From: Lachnospiraceae bacterium
GTDB taxonomy: Bacteria; Bacillota; Clostridia; Lachnospirales; Lachnospiraceae
Length of the DNA stretch: 47,322 nucleotides
NCBI GenBank assembly: GCA_017440375.1
Contig: JAFSHK010000051.1
Location: forward strand, 1-47,322
Reading direction: 5' to 3'
How positions within the stretch are numbered: position 1 is the first letter of the stretch; the number at the start of each line of letters is the position of its first letter. A model generated the notes under the pieces. That model saw only the letters and a list, made by a program, of their open reading frames with translations. It did not search any database and was not told where the DNA came from. Shown here piece after piece: positions 25,302 to 34,335 of this stretch. The position numbers were made by a program, and so were the translations under genes.

Positions 25302-25345
25302 CCCTTGAAGTTATTGAATTATCAATGATTTCAAGGGCTTTTTTT
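25302..25345 (+). terminator. Terminator of rpsB-tsf
   Basis: CCCTTGAA (25302-25309) pairs with TTCAAGGG (25330-25337), with additional inner pairing of TTATTGA with TCAATGA, and is followed by a run of seven or more T. It separates tsf from the lux-like cassette. Confidence 0.9.
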
Positions 25346-25366: not shown

Positions 25367-25396
25367 TTGACATGAAAAATGCGTGTATCATATACT
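25367..25396 (+). promoter_or_regulatory. Strong sigma-A promoter of the lux-like cassette
   Basis: A consensus -35 TTGACA (25367-25372), an 18-nt spacer and -10 TATACT (25391-25396) stand 37 nt before the first gene. No operator-like repeat is obvious around it, so constitutive transcription is possible. Confidence 0.75.
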
Positions 25397-25432: not shown

Positions 25433-26551
25433 ATGACTGCAAGGGAAAAACTAATAAATTTAGAGGATGTATACGATCAGGAAAATTCTTCCGAGATTTT
25501 TCTGGAAGCAATGAGAGATTGTGTGAAACATCACATGGATAATAATGAATTTTTTAAGAAGTATATGGATGAAGCGGGGGTAAAACCGGAGGATATCAAA
25601 TCAGAGGATGATTTGGTGAAAATTCCGCCTATTCATGCTAATTTCTTTAAAAAGTACGAGATATTAAGTGTTCCTCGTGAGCAGATTGTAGAACATGCAA
25701 CGAGTTCAGGAACTACCGGTCAGAAAAGTCAGATGTTCTTTGACCAGGATAGTTTTGATTTTGGAAATGCGATGGTGAGAAATGAATTTCGTCATTTTGG
25801 TTTTTTGTCTGATGATCCGACGAACTATCTCCTTTTTACATATGAACCGGCTCAGATAAGCAAAGATTTAGGTACGGCGAAAACAGACGTCGGTTTGTTG
25901 AGTTACGCACCGGTGAATCAGACTTTTTTTGCTCTTCGCTATAATGGTGAGGGACATGATTTTGATGTATATGGAACCATTAAAGCATTGGAAGAATATG
26001 AGGAACAAGGATTGCCGGTGCGAATCTTCGGGTTTCCGTCTTTTCTTTATTTTACGGTCAGACAAATGAAAGAAACGGGGCATCGTCCGTTAAAATTAAA
26101 TAAGAAGTCCATGACGATGCTTGGCGGTGGATGGAAAGGATATGCGGATAAGCAGATTCGAAAAAGTGAATTGTATGCAATGGTGGAAGAGATGTTAGGT
26201 ATTCCGGCAGAAAATTGCAGGGATGGATATGGTTCAACGGAACATTCCGTGCCTTATTTTGAATGTCCGAATCATCATTTCCATATTCCGGTTTTCAGCA
26301 GAATGTTTATTCGTGATGTGAAAACACTGGAACCGTTACCTTATGGGCAACCGGGATTTGCAAATTTCATTACGCCACATTTGATGAGTGTGCCGGCAGT
26401 ATCTGTCTTAATGGGTGATATGGCTGTGTTGCATGATCCGAAGGAGTGCGGATGCGGTATTAAGACACCGTTTATGGAGATTATTGGTCGTGCCGGTACA
26501 AGTAAGGGAAAAAGCTGTGCAATTACTGCAAGCGAGTTGCTAAAACGCTAA
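25433..26551 (+). CDS. LuxE-like acyl-protein synthetase
   Basis: The 372-aa protein matches the LuxE family (acyl-protein synthetase, related to PaaK adenylate-forming enzymes). LuxE activates a fatty acid with ATP and holds it on a cysteine for LuxC. The phosphate-binding loop is TSSGTTGQKSQ near residues 89-99. GFPSFLYF, GYGSTEHS and the metal-site-like ECGCG follow in family order. C362 in GKSCAITASELLKR lies 11 residues from the end, the place where LuxE carries its acylated cysteine. The length equals LuxE and lacks the PaaK C-terminal lobe. AGGGAG precedes ATG 25433; luxC-like follows after 13 nt. The true acyl substrate is unknown. Confidence 0.85.
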   Translation: MTAREKLINLEDVYDQENSSEIFLEAMRDCVKHHMDNNEFFKKYMDEAGVKPEDIKSEDDLVKIPPIHANFFKKYEILSVPREQIVEHATSSGTTGQKSQMFFDQDSFDFGNAMVRNEFRHFGFLSDDPTNYLLFTYEPAQISKDLGTAKTDVGLLSYAPVNQTFFALRYNGEGHDFDVYGTIKALEEYEEQGLPVRIFGFPSFLYFTVRQMKETGHRPLKLNKKSMTMLGGGWKGYADKQIRKSELYAMVEEMLGIPAENCRDGYGSTEHSVPYFECPNHHFHIPVFSRMFIRDVKTLEPLPYGQPGFANFITPHLMSVPAVSVLMGDMAVLHDPKECGCGIKTPFMEIIGRAGTSKGKSCAITASELLKR

Positions 26552-26564
26552 TAGGGGGATTGTT

Positions 26565-29030
26565 ATGGAATTTATTATAAGAGGTATTAGAACAGAATTG
26601 GATAAAGAAAGCTGTTTCCATGGTGTAAGTGAGAGTATCGCAACTGACTTGGCAAATGGAGCACCTGATATTCGAAGAGTAATAGATAGTCTGGATAAGT
26701 TAGGAAAGTTTTTGATTCAGGAAGAAGAGTTTCTGGTTCCGGAGCTTATGGAACTTGGATTCTCAAGAGAAGAAGCAATGCAGATAAAAAGAGAATCTAT
26801 TTCGGTTTTGTCTGCAGAAGAATTATTTAAGAAGGTGAAAAGAGAACTTGGTGAGCTTCCATTTGAAATTAACAGATTAAGCACACGTGAAGAAGAGTTC
26901 GAAGGATGGATGCCGATAGGGGTTCTTGGGCATGTCACCAGTTCCAATGATGCGATGCTTCCATTTTTCAGTTCCGTAGAGGGTATTCTTGCAGGAAATA
27001 TCAATGTGATAAAGACAGCAACAGGTGCCCACAAGGTGGCAATGACAATGGTGGAAAAACTTTGTGAAATCGATGAGACACTTTGTCCGTATTTCTATGT
27101 ATTTCCGTTATCATCCAAGGATGAGGAATTGTTACAAACGATGTTTTCACTATGTAATGCAATTGCTGTATGGGGCTCTGATAGTGCAACCGCAGGAGTA
27201 CGGAAACTGGCTCCGGCAGGAGTGAAAATTGTAGAATGGGGAAATCGTATCAGTTTTGCTTATTTTACCCAAAAAGGATGCAACACAGAAAGACTGAAGG
27301 GATTAGCGGAGGACGTATGTGTCAATGACCAACAGGCATGTAGCGCACCGCAGCTTGTTTTCTACGAAACAGATAGTAGAGAAGAACTGGAATTATTTGC
27401 AGAGGAAATGATGAAGGTATTGCAGGAGGTTTCTGATACGTATCCGATTCATCCTGTTTCACAGGCGGAACAGGCGGAACTTACCACACAAATCCAGTTA
27501 TGCCACTTGGATGAGATGATGGGAGAAGCAAAGCTGCTTGAAGGGGATGGATGCCGTATTTTTGTAAAATATGACAATGAACTTTGCGCATCACCTTTGT
27601 ACCGTACCTTGCTTGTGAAAGCGATAAAACGAGAGGATGTTATTTCTGTTTTAAGACCGTTTCGTTCTTATCTGCAAAGTGTAGGACTTGCTTGTGATAG
27701 AGAAGAAATTGCAGCACTTACGAGTCTTTTGTTATCGGGTGGTGTGAACAGGATTACGGAACCGGGGCTTATGATGGGTGGCTATACAGGAGAGCCTCAT
27801 GACGGTGTATATGCTTTGACTCATTATCTCAAAAGAGTAAGTTTGATTTCCAAAGACTTGCCAAAGGGTAGTATGTCATTGAGCGAGATGACAGATATGA
27901 GAAAAGCACCATTTGAGACGGGAACACCTTTGCTTCGAAAGGATGATTTTCCATCCAAAAGAGAGATTGAAAGGAAAGGTTATTTGCTATTGAAAAGCGG
28001 AGGCAGCTCCGGAAAGGCTAAGTATGCACCACATTCTTATGATGATGCACAGGTTACATATGATGAGGCGGCACGCTTCATTATTGCGGCAGGAGTTGAT
28101 CCGAAGAAAGATGTATGTATGAATCTTTTTTATGCCGGTGATTTGTATGGTGGTTTTATCAGTATTTACGAAGCTTTGAAAACGGCAGATATTATTCAGC
28201 TACCGATGACAGCGGAGATGGATATGAAGCATGTGGCAGAGGAAATTATATCCAATCATGTCAATGTACTGTTGGGAATGCCTACTTATTTGCTACGACT
28301 TTTCAGGGAACAAAAGGAAGCACTTCAGGAATATGGTAAAATTGAAATTGTCCTTTATGGTGGGGAACATTTTGACCCGGTTCAGATGGAATATCTGAAG
28401 AAAACATTTCATATTAAGAGAATCTCTTCTCTTGGATATGGTTGTAATGAAATTGGTTCCATGGGGTATGCCTGTGAGTGTTGTGAGGGAAGTATTCATC
28501 ACGTTGTGGCAAGCAAATATCTTGAAATATTAAAGATGGATAAAGATGAACCGGTGGAAGAGGGCGAAATAGGAAGACTTGTCTGGACTCCGGTTGATCA
28601 GGAAAATATCGGTATCAAACGATATGAAATCGGGGACTTAGGGCGTTTTATAAAGGAACCTTGTAAATGCGGAAGAGTTGCACCGAGATTTGAGTTACTA
28701 GGCAGATTTGGTGATATTTTCAAATTTGCAACCAATTATATCAATTATAAAAATATTAAGTCCGTATTTTCTGAGAAAATGGGATATACAGGATGGTTAC
28801 AGATTCTTCTGGATTACGATACCATCAGTTGTATGACTATTTGTGTGGAGAGCGATTTTGCATACTCCGGAGCAGATGCATTGAAAATTCTTATGGAAAA
28901 TTATGCTGAAATTGCGGAATGCATACATGATGAGACAGGATCGGTACGAGTGGTTTGTCAGGAGCGCGATGTATTTGTATTAAGCAGTGGTGGCGGAAAA
29001 GTCAGAAGTGTAGTGGATAGAAGAGTGTAA
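26565..29030 (+). CDS. LuxC-like acyl reductase fused to a PaaK-like adenylating domain
   Basis: Residues about 1-440 match LuxC, an NADPH-dependent reductase with an aldehyde-dehydrogenase fold. GWMPIGVLGHVTSSNDAMLPFF lies at about 114-135 and KTATGAHKVA near 150. The probable catalytic cysteine is C259 in NDQQACSAPQ. Residues about 470-821 are a complete adenylate-forming domain. Its loop SGGSSGKAKYAP is near 478, FYAGDLYGG and GYGCNEIGSMGY follow, then CKCGRVAPRFELLGRFGD near 698, and a C-terminal GGGKVRSVVDRR carries the expected catalytic Lys. LuxC alone is about 480 aa, so this is a true fusion. It could activate and reduce an acid in one chain, or receive acyl groups from the LuxE-like protein. 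I see no carrier domain. Confidence 0.85.
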   Translation: MEFIIRGIRTELDKESCFHGVSESIATDLANGAPDIRRVIDSLDKLGKFLIQEEEFLVPELMELGFSREEAMQIKRESISVLSAEELFKKVKRELGELPFEINRLSTREEEFEGWMPIGVLGHVTSSNDAMLPFFSSVEGILAGNINVIKTATGAHKVAMTMVEKLCEIDETLCPYFYVFPLSSKDEELLQTMFSLCNAIAVWGSDSATAGVRKLAPAGVKIVEWGNRISFAYFTQKGCNTERLKGLAEDVCVNDQQACSAPQLVFYETDSREELELFAEEMMKVLQEVSDTYPIHPVSQAEQAELTTQIQLCHLDEMMGEAKLLEGDGCRIFVKYDNELCASPLYRTLLVKAIKREDVISVLRPFRSYLQSVGLACDREEIAALTSLLLSGGVNRITEPGLMMGGYTGEPHDGVYALTHYLKRVSLISKDLPKGSMSLSEMTDMRKAPFETGTPLLRKDDFPSKREIERKGYLLLKSGGSSGKAKYAPHSYDDAQVTYDEAARFIIAAGVDPKKDVCMNLFYAGDLYGGFISIYEALKTADIIQLPMTAEMDMKHVAEEIISNHVNVLLGMPTYLLRLFREQKEALQEYGKIEIVLYGGEHFDPVQMEYLKKTFHIKRISSLGYGCNEIGSMGYACECCEGSIHHVVASKYLEILKMDKDEPVEEGEIGRLVWTPVDQENIGIKRYEIGDLGRFIKEPCKCGRVAPRFELLGRFGDIFKFATNYINYKNIKSVFSEKMGYTGWLQILLDYDTISCMTICVESDFAYSGADALKILMENYAEIAECIHDETGSVRVVCQERDVFVLSSGGGKVRSVVDRRV

Positions 29031-29045
29031 GGACGGGGAGTTATC

Positions 29046-30746
29046 ATGGAAAAAATGTATTATTATAAGCACAATCCCATTGTGAAAAATATTTTCTTTA
29101 CCATGCTTGTTCCTACGATTCTTATGAATCTGACAACAGCACTGGCAAGTTTTGCGGATACGGTAATTATTGGTTATTTTTTGGATGATTTATCGCTGTC
29201 GGTGGTTACGTTTGCGACGCCTATTTATATGATTATTAATACGTTTGCATCTTTGTATGCAGTGGGAGGTTCCATTGCAATGAGCATTGACTCCGGAAAA
29301 GGTGATAAGGAAACAGCCAATGAGGCGTTTAGCATTTCCCTGGAATTAATTGCTTTGACAGGATGTCTGTTGCTTTTATCAGGTATTTTCTTTGGCAGAC
29401 AGATAACGGTATGGTTAGGAGCAGGGGAAGAAGTGTTTGAGATGGTTTATGCTTATGCTATGATCATATTGGTGAGCGCACCTGTATTTATGTTAAATAT
29501 TGGCCTTGCCTTTTTTGTACGAAATGATGGACGTCCAACACTTTCTATGGTAGGGATGTTTCTCTCCATCGTTGTAAATATCGTGTTTGATATCGTATTT
29601 ATCGGAGTGATGAATCTTGGCGTAGCCGGTGCTGCTTATGCAACAGTACTTGGGCAGCTTGTGAGTGTAATTGTAATAGCAAGTCACTTTTTTACTTCCA
29701 GAAATACGTTGAAGTTTCATTTTGTAGTGAATGGAATTGTATTTCGAATTATAAAAAACGGCGCCAGTACCGCATTGCATTTTGTATATCAGTTTCTGAC
29801 CATTCTCATTATGAATCATTATGTGGTGAGTCTGGCAGGAACTAGCGGAGTTGTTGTTTATACGGTTGTGTTCAATCTTTATACGGTTTCGCTTGCTTTG
29901 TTCGAAGGATTAAGCCAGACAATACAGCCTATGGTAAGTCTTTATTATGGCGAAAAAAGCCATAGGAAAATAAAAGATACTTTGCGACTGGTTTTTCTTA
30001 CCACGATTGTTATTTGTGGTACAGTAACGATTGGACTGGAAATTGCACCACAAATTGTTCCTACCGTTTTCGGTGTCAGTGAGGTAGCACTTTTGGAGCA
30101 ATCGGTACTTGCAGTTCGCATTTATGGAACAAGCATGATAATTATGACAATCAATGTTGTGATTGGTTATTATCTGCAGTCAACAGAAAACAGTTTTATG
30201 TCTGCTGTACTGGTTAGTTTCAGATGTTTTGCGTTATTCCTCGGCAGTGCCTTTGTACTGGGTAAGATATTTGGTATGAATGGTGTGTGGGGCGCTTATA
30301 CGTCGGCGGAAGTCATTACCTTTATGATTTTCCTTTTAATGAATCAGATAAAAAGGATGAGGCTAAGGAAGGATGGGATAGAAGCAGATGTATTTTTATT
30401 GAATAAGGAAATTGAAAAGAATACAAGCTGTTTTACTTTATGCTGTCAAAATGACGATTTTCAGGAGTATAGAAAGGTTATTTTAAAGCAGGAAGAAAAC
30501 TATCCGGATATTTCAGAAGCTGTTTTTTTAGATGTGGAGCAGTATCTTTTACAGCTTGAAAAATGTAAAACAAAGGAAAAGGATAAGTATATTGAAGTTG
30601 AAATAAACGGAAAAGAGCAGAAAGTGATTGTAAGAGATAATTTAAATCACAGTGTATTGCAGGAAAATATACAGAATTCCATTCAACATGGAAGCAAAGT
30701 GGAATATGGACCGGTGTTAGGGTGGAATAGAATTTGTGTGGAGTGA
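29046..30746 (+). CDS. MATE family transporter with a cytosolic C-terminal extension
   Basis: Residues about 1-445 form a MATE-type antiporter with some 12 membrane helices. Typical elements are VPTILMNLTTALASFADTVI at the start, ASFADT on helix 1 and FFVRNDGRPTLSM in the middle. Such transporters export small molecules using Na+ or H+. Residues about 446-566 are an extra soluble domain that ends YGPVLGWNRI. It resembles a shortened GHKL/anti-sigma-type ATPase fold known as a tail on some clostridial MATE proteins, but no clear ATP-binding box is left. It lies between the reductase and the ATPase-GNAT gene, so the cluster product or a precursor is a plausible cargo. Confidence 0.88.
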   Translation: MEKMYYYKHNPIVKNIFFTMLVPTILMNLTTALASFADTVIIGYFLDDLSLSVVTFATPIYMIINTFASLYAVGGSIAMSIDSGKGDKETANEAFSISLELIALTGCLLLLSGIFFGRQITVWLGAGEEVFEMVYAYAMIILVSAPVFMLNIGLAFFVRNDGRPTLSMVGMFLSIVVNIVFDIVFIGVMNLGVAGAAYATVLGQLVSVIVIASHFFTSRNTLKFHFVVNGIVFRIIKNGASTALHFVYQFLTILIMNHYVVSLAGTSGVVVYTVVFNLYTVSLALFEGLSQTIQPMVSLYYGEKSHRKIKDTLRLVFLTTIVICGTVTIGLEIAPQIVPTVFGVSEVALLEQSVLAVRIYGTSMIIMTINVVIGYYLQSTENSFMSAVLVSFRCFALFLGSAFVLGKIFGMNGVWGAYTSAEVITFMIFLLMNQIKRMRLRKDGIEADVFLLNKEIEKNTSCFTLCCQNDDFQEYRKVILKQEENYPDISEAVFLDVEQYLLQLEKCKTKEKDKYIEVEINGKEQKVIVRDNLNHSVLQENIQNSIQHGSKVEYGPVLGWNRICVE

Positions 30747-30753
30747 GGTAAAA

Positions 30754-32202
30754 ATGGAAACAAAGAAAATTGCAGCACTTGAAATATGGAATAACAAACG
30801 TTATGTAGATGCTACATTGAGTTTTATGGATGCTATTATTGGCAGGCTCGATATTCCAAGATATCATTCATTTCGATTTGTTGTTGGGGAAATTTTAAAA
30901 CAAAGGATGGAGAATGCTTATCCTGACAACAGAGGAAAAATAAATATAGAAATATATTTGAAAGATACTTTTTTTGAAGTTTCTATCAGGGATAAGGGCA
31001 TACCGGGATGGTCTGATTTTTCTTATGATAAAGAGCGAATTGCAAGTGATAAACAAGATTTGCGTAATTACATATTGGGTGCCTGCGTGGATGGAGTCGG
31101 TATGGAGAAGTTGGGAAGAGAGGGACAAAGAATTTATGTCCGTCTAAGAACTAAGAATCCGATTCAGTTCAAAAGACCGCAGCCCTATAAACCGATGGAA
31201 GTACTTGATACGAATATAAGTATTCGTCCGGTTGTGACACAAGAGGATATTATCGAAGCAATTCGTTGTATTTATAGTGAATACGGCTATTCCTATTCCT
31301 ATGAGAGATTATATTATGTGGACTCTTTCAAGCAGTTAATAGAAGAGAAAGAGATTATGTCTTTTCTTGCCGTGAATGAACACGGACAGATTGCCGGACA
31401 TTTTGCACTGACCTTTTCTGAGCAGTATAAAAATATGCCGGAAATTTCGAATGCAGTGATTCGAAAAGAATTTCGTGGACTTGGATTATTGGCGAGATTC
31501 ATAGATTATTGTATTAAGATTGCTAAAGAGCAGAATTTCAGAGCATTGATGGGACAGCCGGTTGCCTTTCATCCAATGTCACAGAAAGCTTTGTTGAAAG
31601 CCGGATTTACAGCAACTTCTCTCCTAATGTCTTATATTGGTTCTGATTTAGAGAGTGAGTATAATAAAAATGATGAGCGACTGGATTTGTGTGCTTGTGT
31701 GCGAATTATAGATTCTAATGCATATAGTAAGGTTTATGCGCCAAGAGAGTTAGAATGCTGGCTTCATAAGATATATGACAGACTGGGATGGCAGTATGAT
31801 TTTTGTGATGATTTTAAACTAGCCGATAGTACGGAAATTAATATTGAGAATCAGGATGCTTTGAAAATTACGAAAATAATGCTTAGTGAGGCGGCTGATG
31901 ATTTGGAATCTATATTGCAGGAGGCTATTCATAATACCGTTCGAAAGAAAAATGAAATGATAGAATTGGTTATTTCTATGAATTCTCCTAGTTGTGATTA
32001 TGGATATCAGATAGCCAAGAAGTGTGACTTTGTAGTGGCAGGAGTTATTCCGGGAGGAGAAAACGGTGATTATCTTATTATGCAGATGTTGAATGGCGAG
32101 GAATTTGAGTATGACAAGCTAGTAACGGTTGGCGAGTTTGAAGAATTGAAAGAAGATATTATAGACCTGATTAGCAAGCAGAGCGGAGAGGAGTCGTTAT
32201 GA
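30754..32202 (+). CDS. GHKL-type ATPase / GNAT acetyltransferase fusion protein
   Basis: The 482-aa protein has three parts. Residues about 1-145 look like an anti-sigma/SpoIIAB-type ATPase: VVGEILKQRMENAY as N-box, D80-K-G82-I-P84 as G1 box, and a VGMEKLG turn. Residues about 150-325 look like a GNAT acyltransferase, with the acyl-CoA loop in AVIRKEFRGLGLLARFID and FHPMSQKALLKAGF. Residues about 325-482 repeat an alpha/beta pattern (AYSKVYAPRELECW) that I cannot name. ATG 30754 is used because GAGG lies just before it; an in-frame GTG at 30736 would overlap the MATE gene. It ends in a 4-nt ATGA overlap with the next ligase gene. Sensing, partner switching and acyl transfer are all possible. 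Confidence 0.7.
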   Translation: METKKIAALEIWNNKRYVDATLSFMDAIIGRLDIPRYHSFRFVVGEILKQRMENAYPDNRGKINIEIYLKDTFFEVSIRDKGIPGWSDFSYDKERIASDKQDLRNYILGACVDGVGMEKLGREGQRIYVRLRTKNPIQFKRPQPYKPMEVLDTNISIRPVVTQEDIIEAIRCIYSEYGYSYSYERLYYVDSFKQLIEEKEIMSFLAVNEHGQIAGHFALTFSEQYKNMPEISNAVIRKEFRGLGLLARFIDYCIKIAKEQNFRALMGQPVAFHPMSQKALLKAGFTATSLLMSYIGSDLESEYNKNDERLDLCACVRIIDSNAYSKVYAPRELECWLHKIYDRLGWQYDFCDDFKLADSTEINIENQDALKITKIMLSEAADDLESILQEAIHNTVRKKNEMIELVISMNSPSCDYGYQIAKKCDFVVAGVIPGGENGDYLIMQMLNGEEFEYDKLVTVGEFEELKEDIIDLISKQSGEESL

Positions 32203-33452
32203 GTGTTAAGACTTATTCATTAAATGAGATTATCAGTTATGCCAGAAGTCATTCAAAGTATTATGCTGATTTATACAAGGATATTCCGGAGAATGCTTCC
32301 CTTGAGGAGCTTCCGTTTATTGATCAGGATGATTTCTGGGAACATTGTGACCAAGATGGAGGAAGTGTTGCAACAAGACCGCAAACAGACGGACAAATAT
32401 TTAAAAGTGGCGGAACAACAGGAGATCCCAAATATTCTTTGTATACGGCTGAAGAATGGCAGACCTTGTGTGAATGTAGCGGTGCTGTTCTTACGAAGGG
32501 TGGATTGACAAACGGAACCAAAATTGCAAATCTGTTTTATGCAGGTGGTTTGTATGCCAGTTTTTTATATACATATAGTATGTTATATTTTTCTCCGGCG
32601 AAGACCATTATGTATAACCTTGCCGGAAATGTATCTATTGAAGAGATGGTAACGACTATATTAAAGCATCAGATTAACTGTCTGGCAGGTTTGCCATCTA
32701 TACTGACGAAAATGGTTTCCTATATCAATGATAATAAGCTGACAGGATTTGCAGTGGATACTGTTTATTTTGCAGGGGAAACCTTGTATCAGGATCAGCG
32801 AGACAGAATAAGTGAGGCGTTTGGAAGAGATATCGAATTCCGCTCCATTTTTTATGCATCCAATGATGGTGGGCCAATCGGATATTTTACGAAGGATTGT
32901 GGATTTAATGAGCATCGTGCTATGTCTGATTTATGCAAAATGGAATTGGTAGACCCTGATACAGGAGAGGTCATTAGAGAGATGAACAGACCGGGAGTTA
33001 TCTATATCACATCCCTTTTCAAGACGTTAATTCCGTTGATTCGATATCCGGCAGGTGATATGGGCGAATATGTAGAACCGGAAGGTGCTGCAGACCGGAA
33101 GTTTAGGATTCTTGGCAGAAGTGGTGTTGCTGCAAGAGCCGGCTATGTGACTTTATACCCTCAGGATGTGGGAGATATTTTAAATATGTGTGATATTGAA
33201 TACTATGCTTATCAAATTATTGTGACGCATAATATAAGAGATCAGTTTGTATTTAAGATTGCGGTACCAAAGGCAGATGAGAAAAATACAGAAAAGTTTT
33301 TAGAGATGTTATATAAAGAACGCAGTTTAGTAAAAGATGCCATTGATGATAATGTGCTGGATATTCCCAAAGTAGAATGGTGTCAGGCGTCAGAACTTGA
33401 ATACAACGAAAGAACCGGTAAATTAAAGGTTATTATTGATAAGAGAAAATAG
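32199..33452 (+). CDS. PaaK-like adenylate-forming ligase
   Basis: This 417-aa protein belongs to the phenylacetate-CoA ligase-like group of adenylate-forming enzymes. It shows the loop KSGGTTGDPKYS near residue 69, NLFYAGGLYASF, YFAGETLYQDQ, IRYPAGDMGEY and a C-terminal TGKLKVIIDKR with the expected catalytic Lys. It resembles the C-terminal half of the LuxC-like fusion in order and motif spacing, so the two are probably paralogues. Its ATG lies inside the stop of the preceding gene, so translation is coupled. Such enzymes activate a carboxylic acid as an adenylate for transfer to CoA, a carrier or a protein; the acid is unknown. No terminator follows closely. Confidence 0.85.
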   Translation: MSVKTYSLNEIISYARSHSKYYADLYKDIPENASLEELPFIDQDDFWEHCDQDGGSVATRPQTDGQIFKSGGTTGDPKYSLYTAEEWQTLCECSGAVLTKGGLTNGTKIANLFYAGGLYASFLYTYSMLYFSPAKTIMYNLAGNVSIEEMVTTILKHQINCLAGLPSILTKMVSYINDNKLTGFAVDTVYFAGETLYQDQRDRISEAFGRDIEFRSIFYASNDGGPIGYFTKDCGFNEHRAMSDLCKMELVDPDTGEVIREMNRPGVIYITSLFKTLIPLIRYPAGDMGEYVEPEGAADRKFRILGRSGVAARAGYVTLYPQDVGDILNMCDIEYYAYQIIVTHNIRDQFVFKIAVPKADEKNTEKFLEMLYKERSLVKDAIDDNVLDIPKVEWCQASELEYNERTGKLKVIIDKRK

Positions 33453-33473: not shown

Positions 33474-33499
33474 TAGAAAATCCCCATTTTATCCGATAT
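33474..33499 (+). promoter_or_regulatory. Sigma-D (FliA)-like promoter
   Basis: TAGA (33474-33477), a 14-nt spacer and TCCGATAT (33492-33499) fit the motility sigma-factor consensus (TAAA, about 14-15 nt, GCCGATAT) with one mismatch in each box. It lies 62 nt before the following gene. This is a motif match only. Confidence 0.45.
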
Positions 33500-33561
33500 A
33501 TCTTATAAGGCAATAGTGCAATCAGAAATGGATTTCGAACATGGTCAAAGGAGGGCGAAGC

Positions 33562-34335
33562 ATGAGTAAGATAGGTGGATATGGTGTATACCAGAGTTTG
33601 TACGAAAATAGTGTAAATGCCAAAAAAACAAAAGAGACGAAACAGACGGATAAGCAGAATGTTACAGAGACGCAAGTTGCAAAAGCAGAAAAGGCTGACA
33701 AGGAAAATAAAGTTCAGCTAAGTAAGAAAGCGCAAGAACTTCTGGAAGAACTGAAAAAGACATATGGCAATATGGACTTCATGGTAGCGGATTATGAAAG
33801 TGATGAAGAAGCAGCAGCTTATCTGGCAAGAGGAACGAAAGAATACAGTGTTCTGATTGAGCCGGAAACATTGGAGGCAATGGCGGCTGATGAAGAAACA
33901 AAGAATAAATATATTGGTATTTTGGATGATGCAGTTGGTAAACTTTCTGATATGAAAGAACAATTGGGTGATAAAGAGGAAGAGGTAACTCATATTGGTA
34001 TGTCGATAGACGGAGACGGCAATGTAACTTTTTTTGCTGAGTTAGAGAAAGTTAGTGAACGTCAGAAAGAATTTGTCGAGAAAATGCAAGAGAGCAAAAA
34101 GGCCGAGAAAGAGGAACAAGAAGAAAACGGCGAAAAAGCGGTCAACACAAAAACGGACGATAAGAGCGTAGAGGCAAGTACATCGGCATATAAAGCTTTC
34201 GATAAAACGAAAAAAACAAGAGTTGAGGCCGGTTCCATAGAAGAACTGTTGGAGAAAATCAAAGCAGTGGACTGGGAGCAGGTGAAGGGCGAGGAAATAC
34301 CGGAAAGCGGTAGTCGTTTTGATTTTACTGTTTAA
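33562..34335 (+). CDS. DUF6033-like protein of unknown function
   Basis: The 257-aa soluble protein starts MSKIGGYGVYQSLYENS at ATG 33562, 6 nt after AAAGGAGGG. An in-frame ATG at 33541 lies before that site and is unlikely. A Lys/Thr-rich disordered segment (about 18-50) is followed by a conserved-looking core (about 52-180) with KTYGNMDFMVADYESDEEA, ARGTKEYSVLIEPETLE and GMSIDGDGNVTFFAELEK. I recall this pattern as DUF6033, common in Lachnospiraceae, without a known role. The rest is charged and Lys/Glu rich. A FliA-like promoter upstream would make it a late motility gene; this is inference. Confidence 0.72.
   Translation: MSKIGGYGVYQSLYENSVNAKKTKETKQTDKQNVTETQVAKAEKADKENKVQLSKKAQELLEELKKTYGNMDFMVADYESDEEAAAYLARGTKEYSVLIEPETLEAMAADEETKNKYIGILDDAVGKLSDMKEQLGDKEEEVTHIGMSIDGDGNVTFFAELEKVSERQKEFVEKMQESKKAEKEEQEENGEKAVNTKTDDKSVEASTSAYKAFDKTKKTRVEAGSIEELLEKIKAVDWEQVKGEEIPESGSRFDFTV

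What the first reader, a model, noticed from the sequence alone, without database searches (positions are those of the whole stretch)
25433..33452. Lux-like acid-reduction cassette without luciferase in a motile gut-type Clostridium
Five tightly packed + strand genes (gaps 13, 15 and 7 nt, then a 4-nt overlap) behind one strong promoter encode a LuxE-like synthetase, a LuxC-ligase fusion, a MATE exporter, an ATPase-GNAT fusion and a PaaK-like ligase. Seen: intact active-site motifs in all activation and reduction domains, and no luxA, luxB or luxD. Known: LuxE plus LuxC turn fatty acids into aldehydes through cysteine-bound acyl groups. Inferred: the cassette makes and exports an aldehyde or alcohol derivative, or modifies a lipid or protein. 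Three adenylating domains for one reductase point to more than one acid substrate.
Basis: partly seen in the sequence, partly recalled or inferred. Interest (0 to 1): 0.8.

Follow-up and report, generated by a model that had tools for sequence, protein, structure and literature searches.

The report
Lux-like operon probably making peptide aldehydes
A five-gene operon in a gut-type bacterium reuses relatives of the enzymes that feed bacterial light production, without a luciferase, and most likely builds and exports a small peptide aldehyde of the protease-inhibitor kind (like leupeptin); much the same gene set turns up in unrelated bacteria.

Summary
In detail: 25433-33452 carries five packed + strand genes (LuxE-like, LuxC-ligase fusion, MATE exporter, ATPase-like/GNAT, PaaK-like ligase) behind a promoter-like site after the tsf terminator. 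It is a real, mobile unit. All five families sit together in the 8 clostridial loci not cut by contig ends, window included (6 in the same order), mostly among different neighbours. A same-genus genome has tsf followed directly by the next window gene. Full-length fusions also occur in 6 of 72,556 plasmid records (Streptomyces-type, Salmonella) with LuxE; the PaaK-like protein hits exactly those six, and the five inspected also hold a GNAT (split in one). The 12 fused LuxC domains compared form one group (99/98). Active-site cysteines are invariant; dN is far below (saturated) dS. Best explanation (0.6): an NRPS-independent assembly line for an exported N-acyl peptide aldehyde of the leupeptin kind. 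Two PaaK-type ligases form two amide bonds, LuxE plus LuxC turn the C-terminal acid into an aldehyde, the GNAT caps the N-terminus, MATE or MFS exports. Substrates and product are inferred.

The parts
25302..25337 (+). terminator-like hairpin after tsf, separating the cassette from the rpsB-tsf unit
   Evidence: 16 pairs, T-rich tail
25367..25396 (+). sigma-70-like promoter TTGACA-18-TATACT
   Evidence: consensus match only
25433..26551 (+). LuxE-like acyl-protein synthetase; Cys362 at 26516-26518 is the expected acyl-carrying cysteine
   Evidence: Pfam 1.3e-33; Cys362 invariant in 16 of 16 and aligned with the C-terminal Cys of solved LuxE 7xc6_E
26565..29030 (+). LuxC-like acyl-thioester reductase (about residues 35-421; Cys259 at 27339-27341) fused to a PaaK-type AMP-forming ligase (about residues 437-820)
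   Evidence: Pfam LuxC 2.2e-78 and AMP-binding 5.2e-8; NCBIfam ligase matches to residue 820; the 12 fused LuxC domains group together
29046..30746 (+). MATE-family exporter with a C-terminal tail of unknown fold
   Evidence: Pfam 1.3e-25; the tail is not supported as a HATPase (hhalign probability 1%)
30754..32202 (+). degenerate HATPase-like domain, GNAT acyltransferase domain and an unassigned C-terminal region
   Evidence: alignment of 8
32199..33452 (+). second, free-standing PaaK-type AMP-forming ligase
   Evidence: motifs in 12 of 12; profile matches solved phenylacetate-CoA ligases

Best explanation
A horizontally moving, NRPS-independent biosynthetic operon for an exported N-acyl peptide aldehyde, most likely a protease inhibitor of the leupeptin kind (leupeptin is acetyl-Leu-Leu-argininal; structure recalled). 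Inferred steps: the two PaaK-type ligases (the free one and the one fused to LuxC) adenylate amino acids or a dipeptide and form two amide bonds; the GNAT caps the N-terminal amine with an acyl group; LuxE adenylates the C-terminal carboxylate, loads it on Cys362 and passes it to Cys259 of LuxC, which reduces it with NAD(P)H to the aldehyde; the MATE pump (MFS in Streptomyces) exports it. Shown here: domains, active-site residues, co-conservation, presence in distant lineages with an empty site in a close one, purifying selection. Not shown: substrates, order of steps, product.
For: All five families in the 8 clostridial loci not cut by contig ends, window included; three further loci are cut, and the genes they hold are in cassette order. 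In Streptomyces-type plasmids PaaK-MFS-GNAT-LuxE-fusion (L125, L126, L127) and in Salmonella plasmids LuxE-fusion-PaaK-GNAT. Of 72,556 plasmid records the fusion (at least 80% covered) and the second ligase (E up to 1e-25) hit the same 6. The 12 fused LuxC domains compared group together, 99/98. Pairwise identities of the five proteins correlate at 0.86-0.99, and dN is well below saturated dS for all five. Empty site in a same-genus genome (L114). The parts list (2 amide ligases, 1 activation-reduction pair, 1 N-acyltransferase, 1 exporter) equals the needs of an N-acyl tripeptide aldehyde (inference). PMC11212599 (passage) says leupeptin in Xenorhabdus bovienii comes from separate AMP-dependent ligases for the amide bonds and a reductase for the aldehyde. 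Klebsiella leupABCD lies beside a transporter and its cluster spans 5,831 bp (PMC8283571 passages); the Salmonella LuxE-to-GNAT block spans 5,759 bp. No condensation domain in 4 of 6 relatives' genomes.
Against: The published leupA forward primer begins ATG and would encode MKIAIHN (my translation), which resembles no N-terminus of the cassette proteins, so that operon may be built differently. PaaK and LuxE families are best known for acyl-CoA and fatty acid chemistry; nothing here shows amino-acid binding. GNATs may do unrelated acylations, and the window GNAT was not found directly similar to the Streptomyces one. 2 of 6 relatives' genomes do have a condensation domain somewhere. Equal block length is weak evidence.
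Confidence: 0.6

Rival explanations
1. A fatty or aromatic acid reduction pathway: LuxE and LuxC make a long-chain or aromatic aldehyde (or alcohol), the two ligases make other acyl-CoAs, and the GNAT joins one of them to an amine, giving an exported fatty or aryl amide or ester.
For: LuxE and LuxC are classically fatty acid reductase subunits (recalled); the ligase profiles match phenylacetate-CoA ligases best among solved proteins.
Against: NCBIfam equivalog scores for fatty-acid LuxE and LuxC are far below cut-off (96.3 against 550; 63.1 against 750). Pfam finds no ACP or thioesterase among the five genes or the added genes of L054; other flanks were judged by eye or by single Pfam checks. 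Stand-alone luxE-luxC pairs, to my mind the likelier fatty acid version, branch outside the fused group.
Confidence: 0.22
2. A surface-modification module, such as the LuxE/LuxC genes of flagellin glycosylation islands, adding an acyl-derived group to flagellin or a glycan.
For: LuxE and LuxC occur in flagellin glycosylation islands of Aeromonas and Enterobacteriaceae (PMC7874193, PMC4875605, passages); the window holds chemotaxis and sigma factor genes (CheD, sigma-70).
Against: Those islands carry ACP, FabG, AMP synthetase and glycosyltransferases; the cassette genes hold no ACP, FabG or glycosyltransferase. In the other loci no flagellar gene was recognised beside the cassette; the flanks were judged by eye apart from the Pfam checks (class I tRNA synthetase, dapB, uvrB, carboxypeptidase, methyltransferase).
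Confidence: 0.06
3. A signalling system: a small aldehyde, or the pyrazinone it cyclises to, is an exported autoinducer tied to a partner-switch regulator, and protease inhibition is secondary.
For: In L054 STAS and SpoIIE-HATPase genes lie directly upstream, in L059 likewise a STAS gene and a close copy of the SpoIIE gene; a Lux-free cluster STAS-MATE-GNAT-SpoIIE-RsbW exists (L101); leupeptin-derived pyrazinones act as signals in Klebsiella (PMC11480411 passages).
Against: The other six complete cassettes show no such genes directly beside them as far as judged by eye; the HATPase part of gene 4 lacks a consistent N-box (by eye; motif recalled) and is absent in L088; the MATE tail is not a HATPase by profile comparison.
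Confidence: 0.12

Closest known systems
leupeptin (leup) pathway of Xenorhabdus, Photorhabdus and Klebsiella (Li et al. 2020; known here only through citing papers)
   Same: NRPS-independent; separate AMP-dependent ligases plus a reductase giving an aldehyde; an adjacent transporter (Klebsiella); similar size of the biosynthetic block
   Different: gene-by-gene homology untested; the published leupA start does not resemble a cassette protein; our cassette is in Clostridia, has a LuxC-ligase fusion, a MATE and a HATPase-like/GNAT fusion
lux operon fatty acid reductase (LuxC-LuxE; structure 7xc6)
   Same: homologous LuxE and LuxC with the acyl-carrying cysteines
   Different: no LuxA, LuxB or LuxD in the cassette; scores far below the fatty-acid equivalog cut-offs; fused and free PaaK-type ligases, GNAT and exporter added
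livipeptin cluster of Streptomyces lividans (PMC10548850, passages)
   Same: peptide aldehyde type product proposed, N-acyltransferase, located on a plasmid
   Different: NRPS-like enzyme and tRNA-using enzyme instead of PaaK-type ligases and LuxE/LuxC
LuxE/LuxC of flagellin glycosylation islands (PMC7874193, PMC4875605, passages)
   Same: LuxE plus LuxC without luciferase
   Different: those sit with ACP, FabG and glycosyltransferases, which the cassette lacks

Membership tests
lux bioluminescence operon | LuxE and LuxC homologues with catalytic cysteines | tested here: met
lux bioluminescence operon | luciferase (LuxA/LuxB, PF00296) | tested here: not met
   no match in own genome (68% complete); none in the cassette
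lux bioluminescence operon | scores above NCBIfam LuxE and LuxC equivalog cut-offs | tested here: not met
   96.3 against 550 and 63.1 against 750
leupeptin-type non-NRPS pathway | separate AMP-dependent ligase domains (two amide bonds) | tested here: met
   two PaaK-type ligase domains besides LuxE; presence only, their amide activity is not shown
leupeptin-type non-NRPS pathway | a reductase domain that could form the aldehyde | tested here: met
   LuxC domain with invariant Cys259; presence only, activity is not shown
leupeptin-type non-NRPS pathway | transporter next to the biosynthetic genes | tested here: met
   MATE in Clostridia, MFS in Streptomyces, an MdfA-like fragment before the Salmonella cassette
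leupeptin-type non-NRPS pathway | sequence homology to leupA-D | tested here: inconclusive
leupeptin-type non-NRPS pathway | product is an N-acyl peptide aldehyde | not testable with these tools
   needs expression and mass spectrometry
flagellin glycosylation LuxE/LuxC module | ACP, FabG and glycosyltransferase neighbours | tested here: not met
   none among the cassette genes by Pfam
NRPS peptide aldehyde cluster | condensation, carrier and reductase domains of an NRPS | tested here: not met
   none in the cassette; condensation domain in 2 of 6 relatives' genomes; own genome not searched for it

The most novel reading that the evidence does not exclude
A cross-phylum family of mobile, NRPS-free peptide-aldehyde assembly lines exists in which a LuxE/LuxC pair related to the fatty acid reductase has become the reductive release step and LuxC is fused to an amide ligase. 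In ruminant hindgut Clostridia it makes new protease inhibitors or pyrazinone signals, in some strains under partner-switch control.
Probability: 0.45. Interest if true: 0.78.

Novelty: new variant of a known kind. Interest (0 to 1): 0.62.

Why it matters
If right, it extends NRPS-independent peptide aldehyde synthesis to anaerobic gut Clostridia, gives a sequence signature (a LuxC-PaaK fusion beside LuxE, PaaK and GNAT) for finding operons that NRPS-based mining would miss, and offers a compact operon that can be expressed whole to learn whether gut bacteria make leupeptin-like inhibitors of host or microbial proteases.

Tried and rejected
Rejected or not supported: a regulatory HATPase tail on MATE (hhalign probability 1%); a phage or viral origin (no full-length match in phages; no relative in two viral contig scans); a defence system (no PADLOC hit for the five proteins); a structured RNA (no Rfam hit over gathering in the window); E. 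coli carriage of the Salmonella version (no match); terminal repeats at the cassette ends (the repeats found do not pair the two ends). For the 431-aa gene of L054 Pfam gave nothing at 0.01 and only a chance-level ThiJ-like hit at 0.095, and the PDB only weak hits, mostly designed armadillo repeats. No held paper describing this cassette was seen in the listings of searches; the two antiSMASH papers looked up do not contain the word leupeptin.
Full report
What is there. The five genes are as described: LuxE-like 25433-26551, LuxC-ligase fusion 26565-29030, MATE 29046-30746, ATPase-like/GNAT 30754-32202, PaaK-like 32199-33452, with gaps 13, 15, 7 and a 4-nt overlap. Domains come from Pfam and NCBIfam. 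A terminator-like hairpin lies behind tsf at 25302-25337 and a promoter-like site at 25367-25396 (promoter-like sites in the region are not above chance). No terminator-like site separates the last gene from the DUF6033 gene at 33541, so read-through is possible. The own genome (G000; 1.94 Mb, 66 contigs, 68% complete) has one LuxC and no luciferase-family protein. By GC the cassette does not stand out (0.389 against 0.390 in the flanks).

Is it a unit elsewhere? In the genus, 0 of 76 other genomes have the full fusion (77 searched with own, 36 with some match, mostly to the ligase half). In the family it is own plus G125 of 299 (175 with some match, listing capped but sorted by E-value); in the order draw own plus G539 of 344 (14 with a match at 1e-40, the other 12 to LuxC only); in the class draw own plus G943, G749 and G782, and a partial at a contig end in G687, of 391 (15 with a match, the other 10 to LuxC only); in a phylum draw, with a Streptomyces fusion as query at 1e-60, own only of 398. 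The draws overlap. That makes 11 clostridial loci with the window. Eight hold the whole cassette: window, L055, L056, L058, L088 and L089 in the same order; L054 and L059 with all five families in another order and extra genes. Three are cut by contig ends (L057, L078, L091), with the genes present in cassette order. L054 and L059 share much of their surroundings (95% identical over 14.9 kb); otherwise the flanking genes seen differ: tsf and DUF6033 in the window, dapB before L057, a class I tRNA synthetase before L058, uvrB before L089 (Pfam), others by eye. L056 (GC 0.558; GC3 above 0.72 in all five genes) has proteins 54-83% identical to the window's, and L088 (GC 0.31) 31-70%. Several relative operons show promoter-like and hairpin-like stretches at their ends by eye.

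Empty site. In same-genus locus L114, tsf is followed after 209 nt by the DUF6033 gene that in the window lies behind the cassette. Homology on the left ends about at the end of tsf (25238); on the right it resumes at 33524, with a 17-nt match already at 33493. Of the 20 tsf loci kept (own included; 30 of 31 genomes matched), L114 is the only one with DUF6033 within the 1.5 kb held; the 18 others have other ORFs, or none called, behind tsf. No repeat pairs the two cassette ends, and no transposase was recognised by eye.

Beyond Clostridia. tblastn of 72,556 plasmid records matched 78, of which 6 hold the fusion over at least 80% of its length: Streptantibioticus cattleyicolor (two records of one strain), Streptomyces NBC_00158, Streptomyces BHT-5-2 and two Salmonella enterica plasmids. 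The PaaK-like protein at 1e-25 finds exactly these six; LuxE at 1e-30 finds eight, the six plus two without a full fusion. I looked at the surroundings of five of the six (not NC_017585). Streptomyces order: PaaK-MFS-GNAT-LuxE-fusion. Salmonella order: LuxE-fusion-PaaK-GNAT, with a 121-aa MdfA-like fragment in front; the GNAT is whole in CP054717 and split between two frames in CP053580. Similarity of the window GNAT to the Salmonella GNAT is weak (2.9e-8 in a five-protein set) and to the Streptomyces GNAT was not detected directly; these are family-level equivalents. The exporter belongs to another superfamily there, which suggests that export matters and the pump is exchangeable (inference).

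Descent. In a tree of 28 LuxC domains (16 stand-alone, including one on an unverified faecal scaffold) the 12 fused domains are one side of a branch (99/98; in 99% of 200 bootstrap trees), next to stand-alone L092-L095. Left out of the tree although held: fused L059, L078 and the L091 tail, and stand-alone LuxC of L033 and L096-L099. Two rows have long branches (one is the Salmonella fusion) and seven have deviant composition, which the tool flags. dN is 0.07-0.78 while dS is saturated or above 1.6 for all five genes against six loci. Identities of the five proteins over locus pairs correlate at 0.86-0.99 (66, 55 or 21 pairs). The cassette thus appears to move and evolve as a block.

Chemistry. 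LuxE Cys362 aligns with the C-terminal cysteine of solved LuxE 7xc6_E, and a review passage names Cys362 as catalytic in LuxE (PMC12655506). LuxC Cys259 is invariant, and the LuxC half matches the reductase of 7xc6. LuxE/LuxC chemistry turns an acid into an aldehyde (recalled). Two more adenylating domains remain, plus a GNAT and an exporter: two amide bonds, one N-cap, one C-terminal reduction, one exit. That is the parts list of an N-acyl tripeptide aldehyde (inference). PMC11212599 (passage) says that leupeptin in Xenorhabdus bovienii is made by separate AMP-dependent ligases and a reductase; PMC11480411 and PMC8283571 (passages) describe the Klebsiella leup operon, its product, its pyrazinone and its adjacent transporter. 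I did not see Li et al. 2020 itself. Against: the leupA primer start (MKIAIHN in my translation) matches no cassette N-terminus, so I claim likeness of mechanism and not membership.

Regulatory hints. In L054 a STAS gene and a SpoIIE-HATPase gene precede LuxE, and L059 has the same layout (STAS by Pfam); downstream lie a 431-aa protein with FHGVSDG (recalled as condensation-like; no Pfam family), an APH-type kinase and a second MATE carrying a HATPase. L101 shows STAS-MATE-GNAT-SpoIIE-RsbW without Lux genes, and its GNAT is a distant relative of gene 4. I infer that the MATE and gene 4 were recruited from such partner-switch modules. The window genome has two STAS hits and one weak SpoIIE hit, all on other contigs.

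Verdict. The peptide-aldehyde reading is the best supported (0.6), fatty or aryl products less so (0.22).

Noticed in passing
L054:6202-21000 and L059:6250-21001: Extended version of the cassette with STAS and SpoIIE-HATPase upstream and a 431-aa FHGVSDG protein, an APH-type kinase and a second MATE-HATPase downstream.
   Followed up: partly
L101:5958-11849: Lux-free cluster STAS-MATE-GNAT-SpoIIE-RsbW in a related family member; looks like the module from which MATE and gene 4 were taken.
   Followed up: partly
L035:1-8393: A stand-alone luxE-luxC pair directly behind what looks by eye like a thiamine-type gene run; reason unknown.
   Followed up: no
L123 and L124 (Salmonella plasmids CP053580, CP054717): Relative of the cassette on plasmids typed as conjugative; the GNAT ORF is whole in one and split into two frames in the other; an MdfA-like fragment lies in front. 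Described only.
   Followed up: partly
L128:8778-11152: luxE-luxC pair on an unverified faecal 'Bacteriophage sp.' scaffold (MT835565); may be bacterial DNA.
   Followed up: no
window 33541-34335: DUF6033 gene behind the cassette, also right after tsf in L114; no terminator-like site between it and the cassette.
   Followed up: partly
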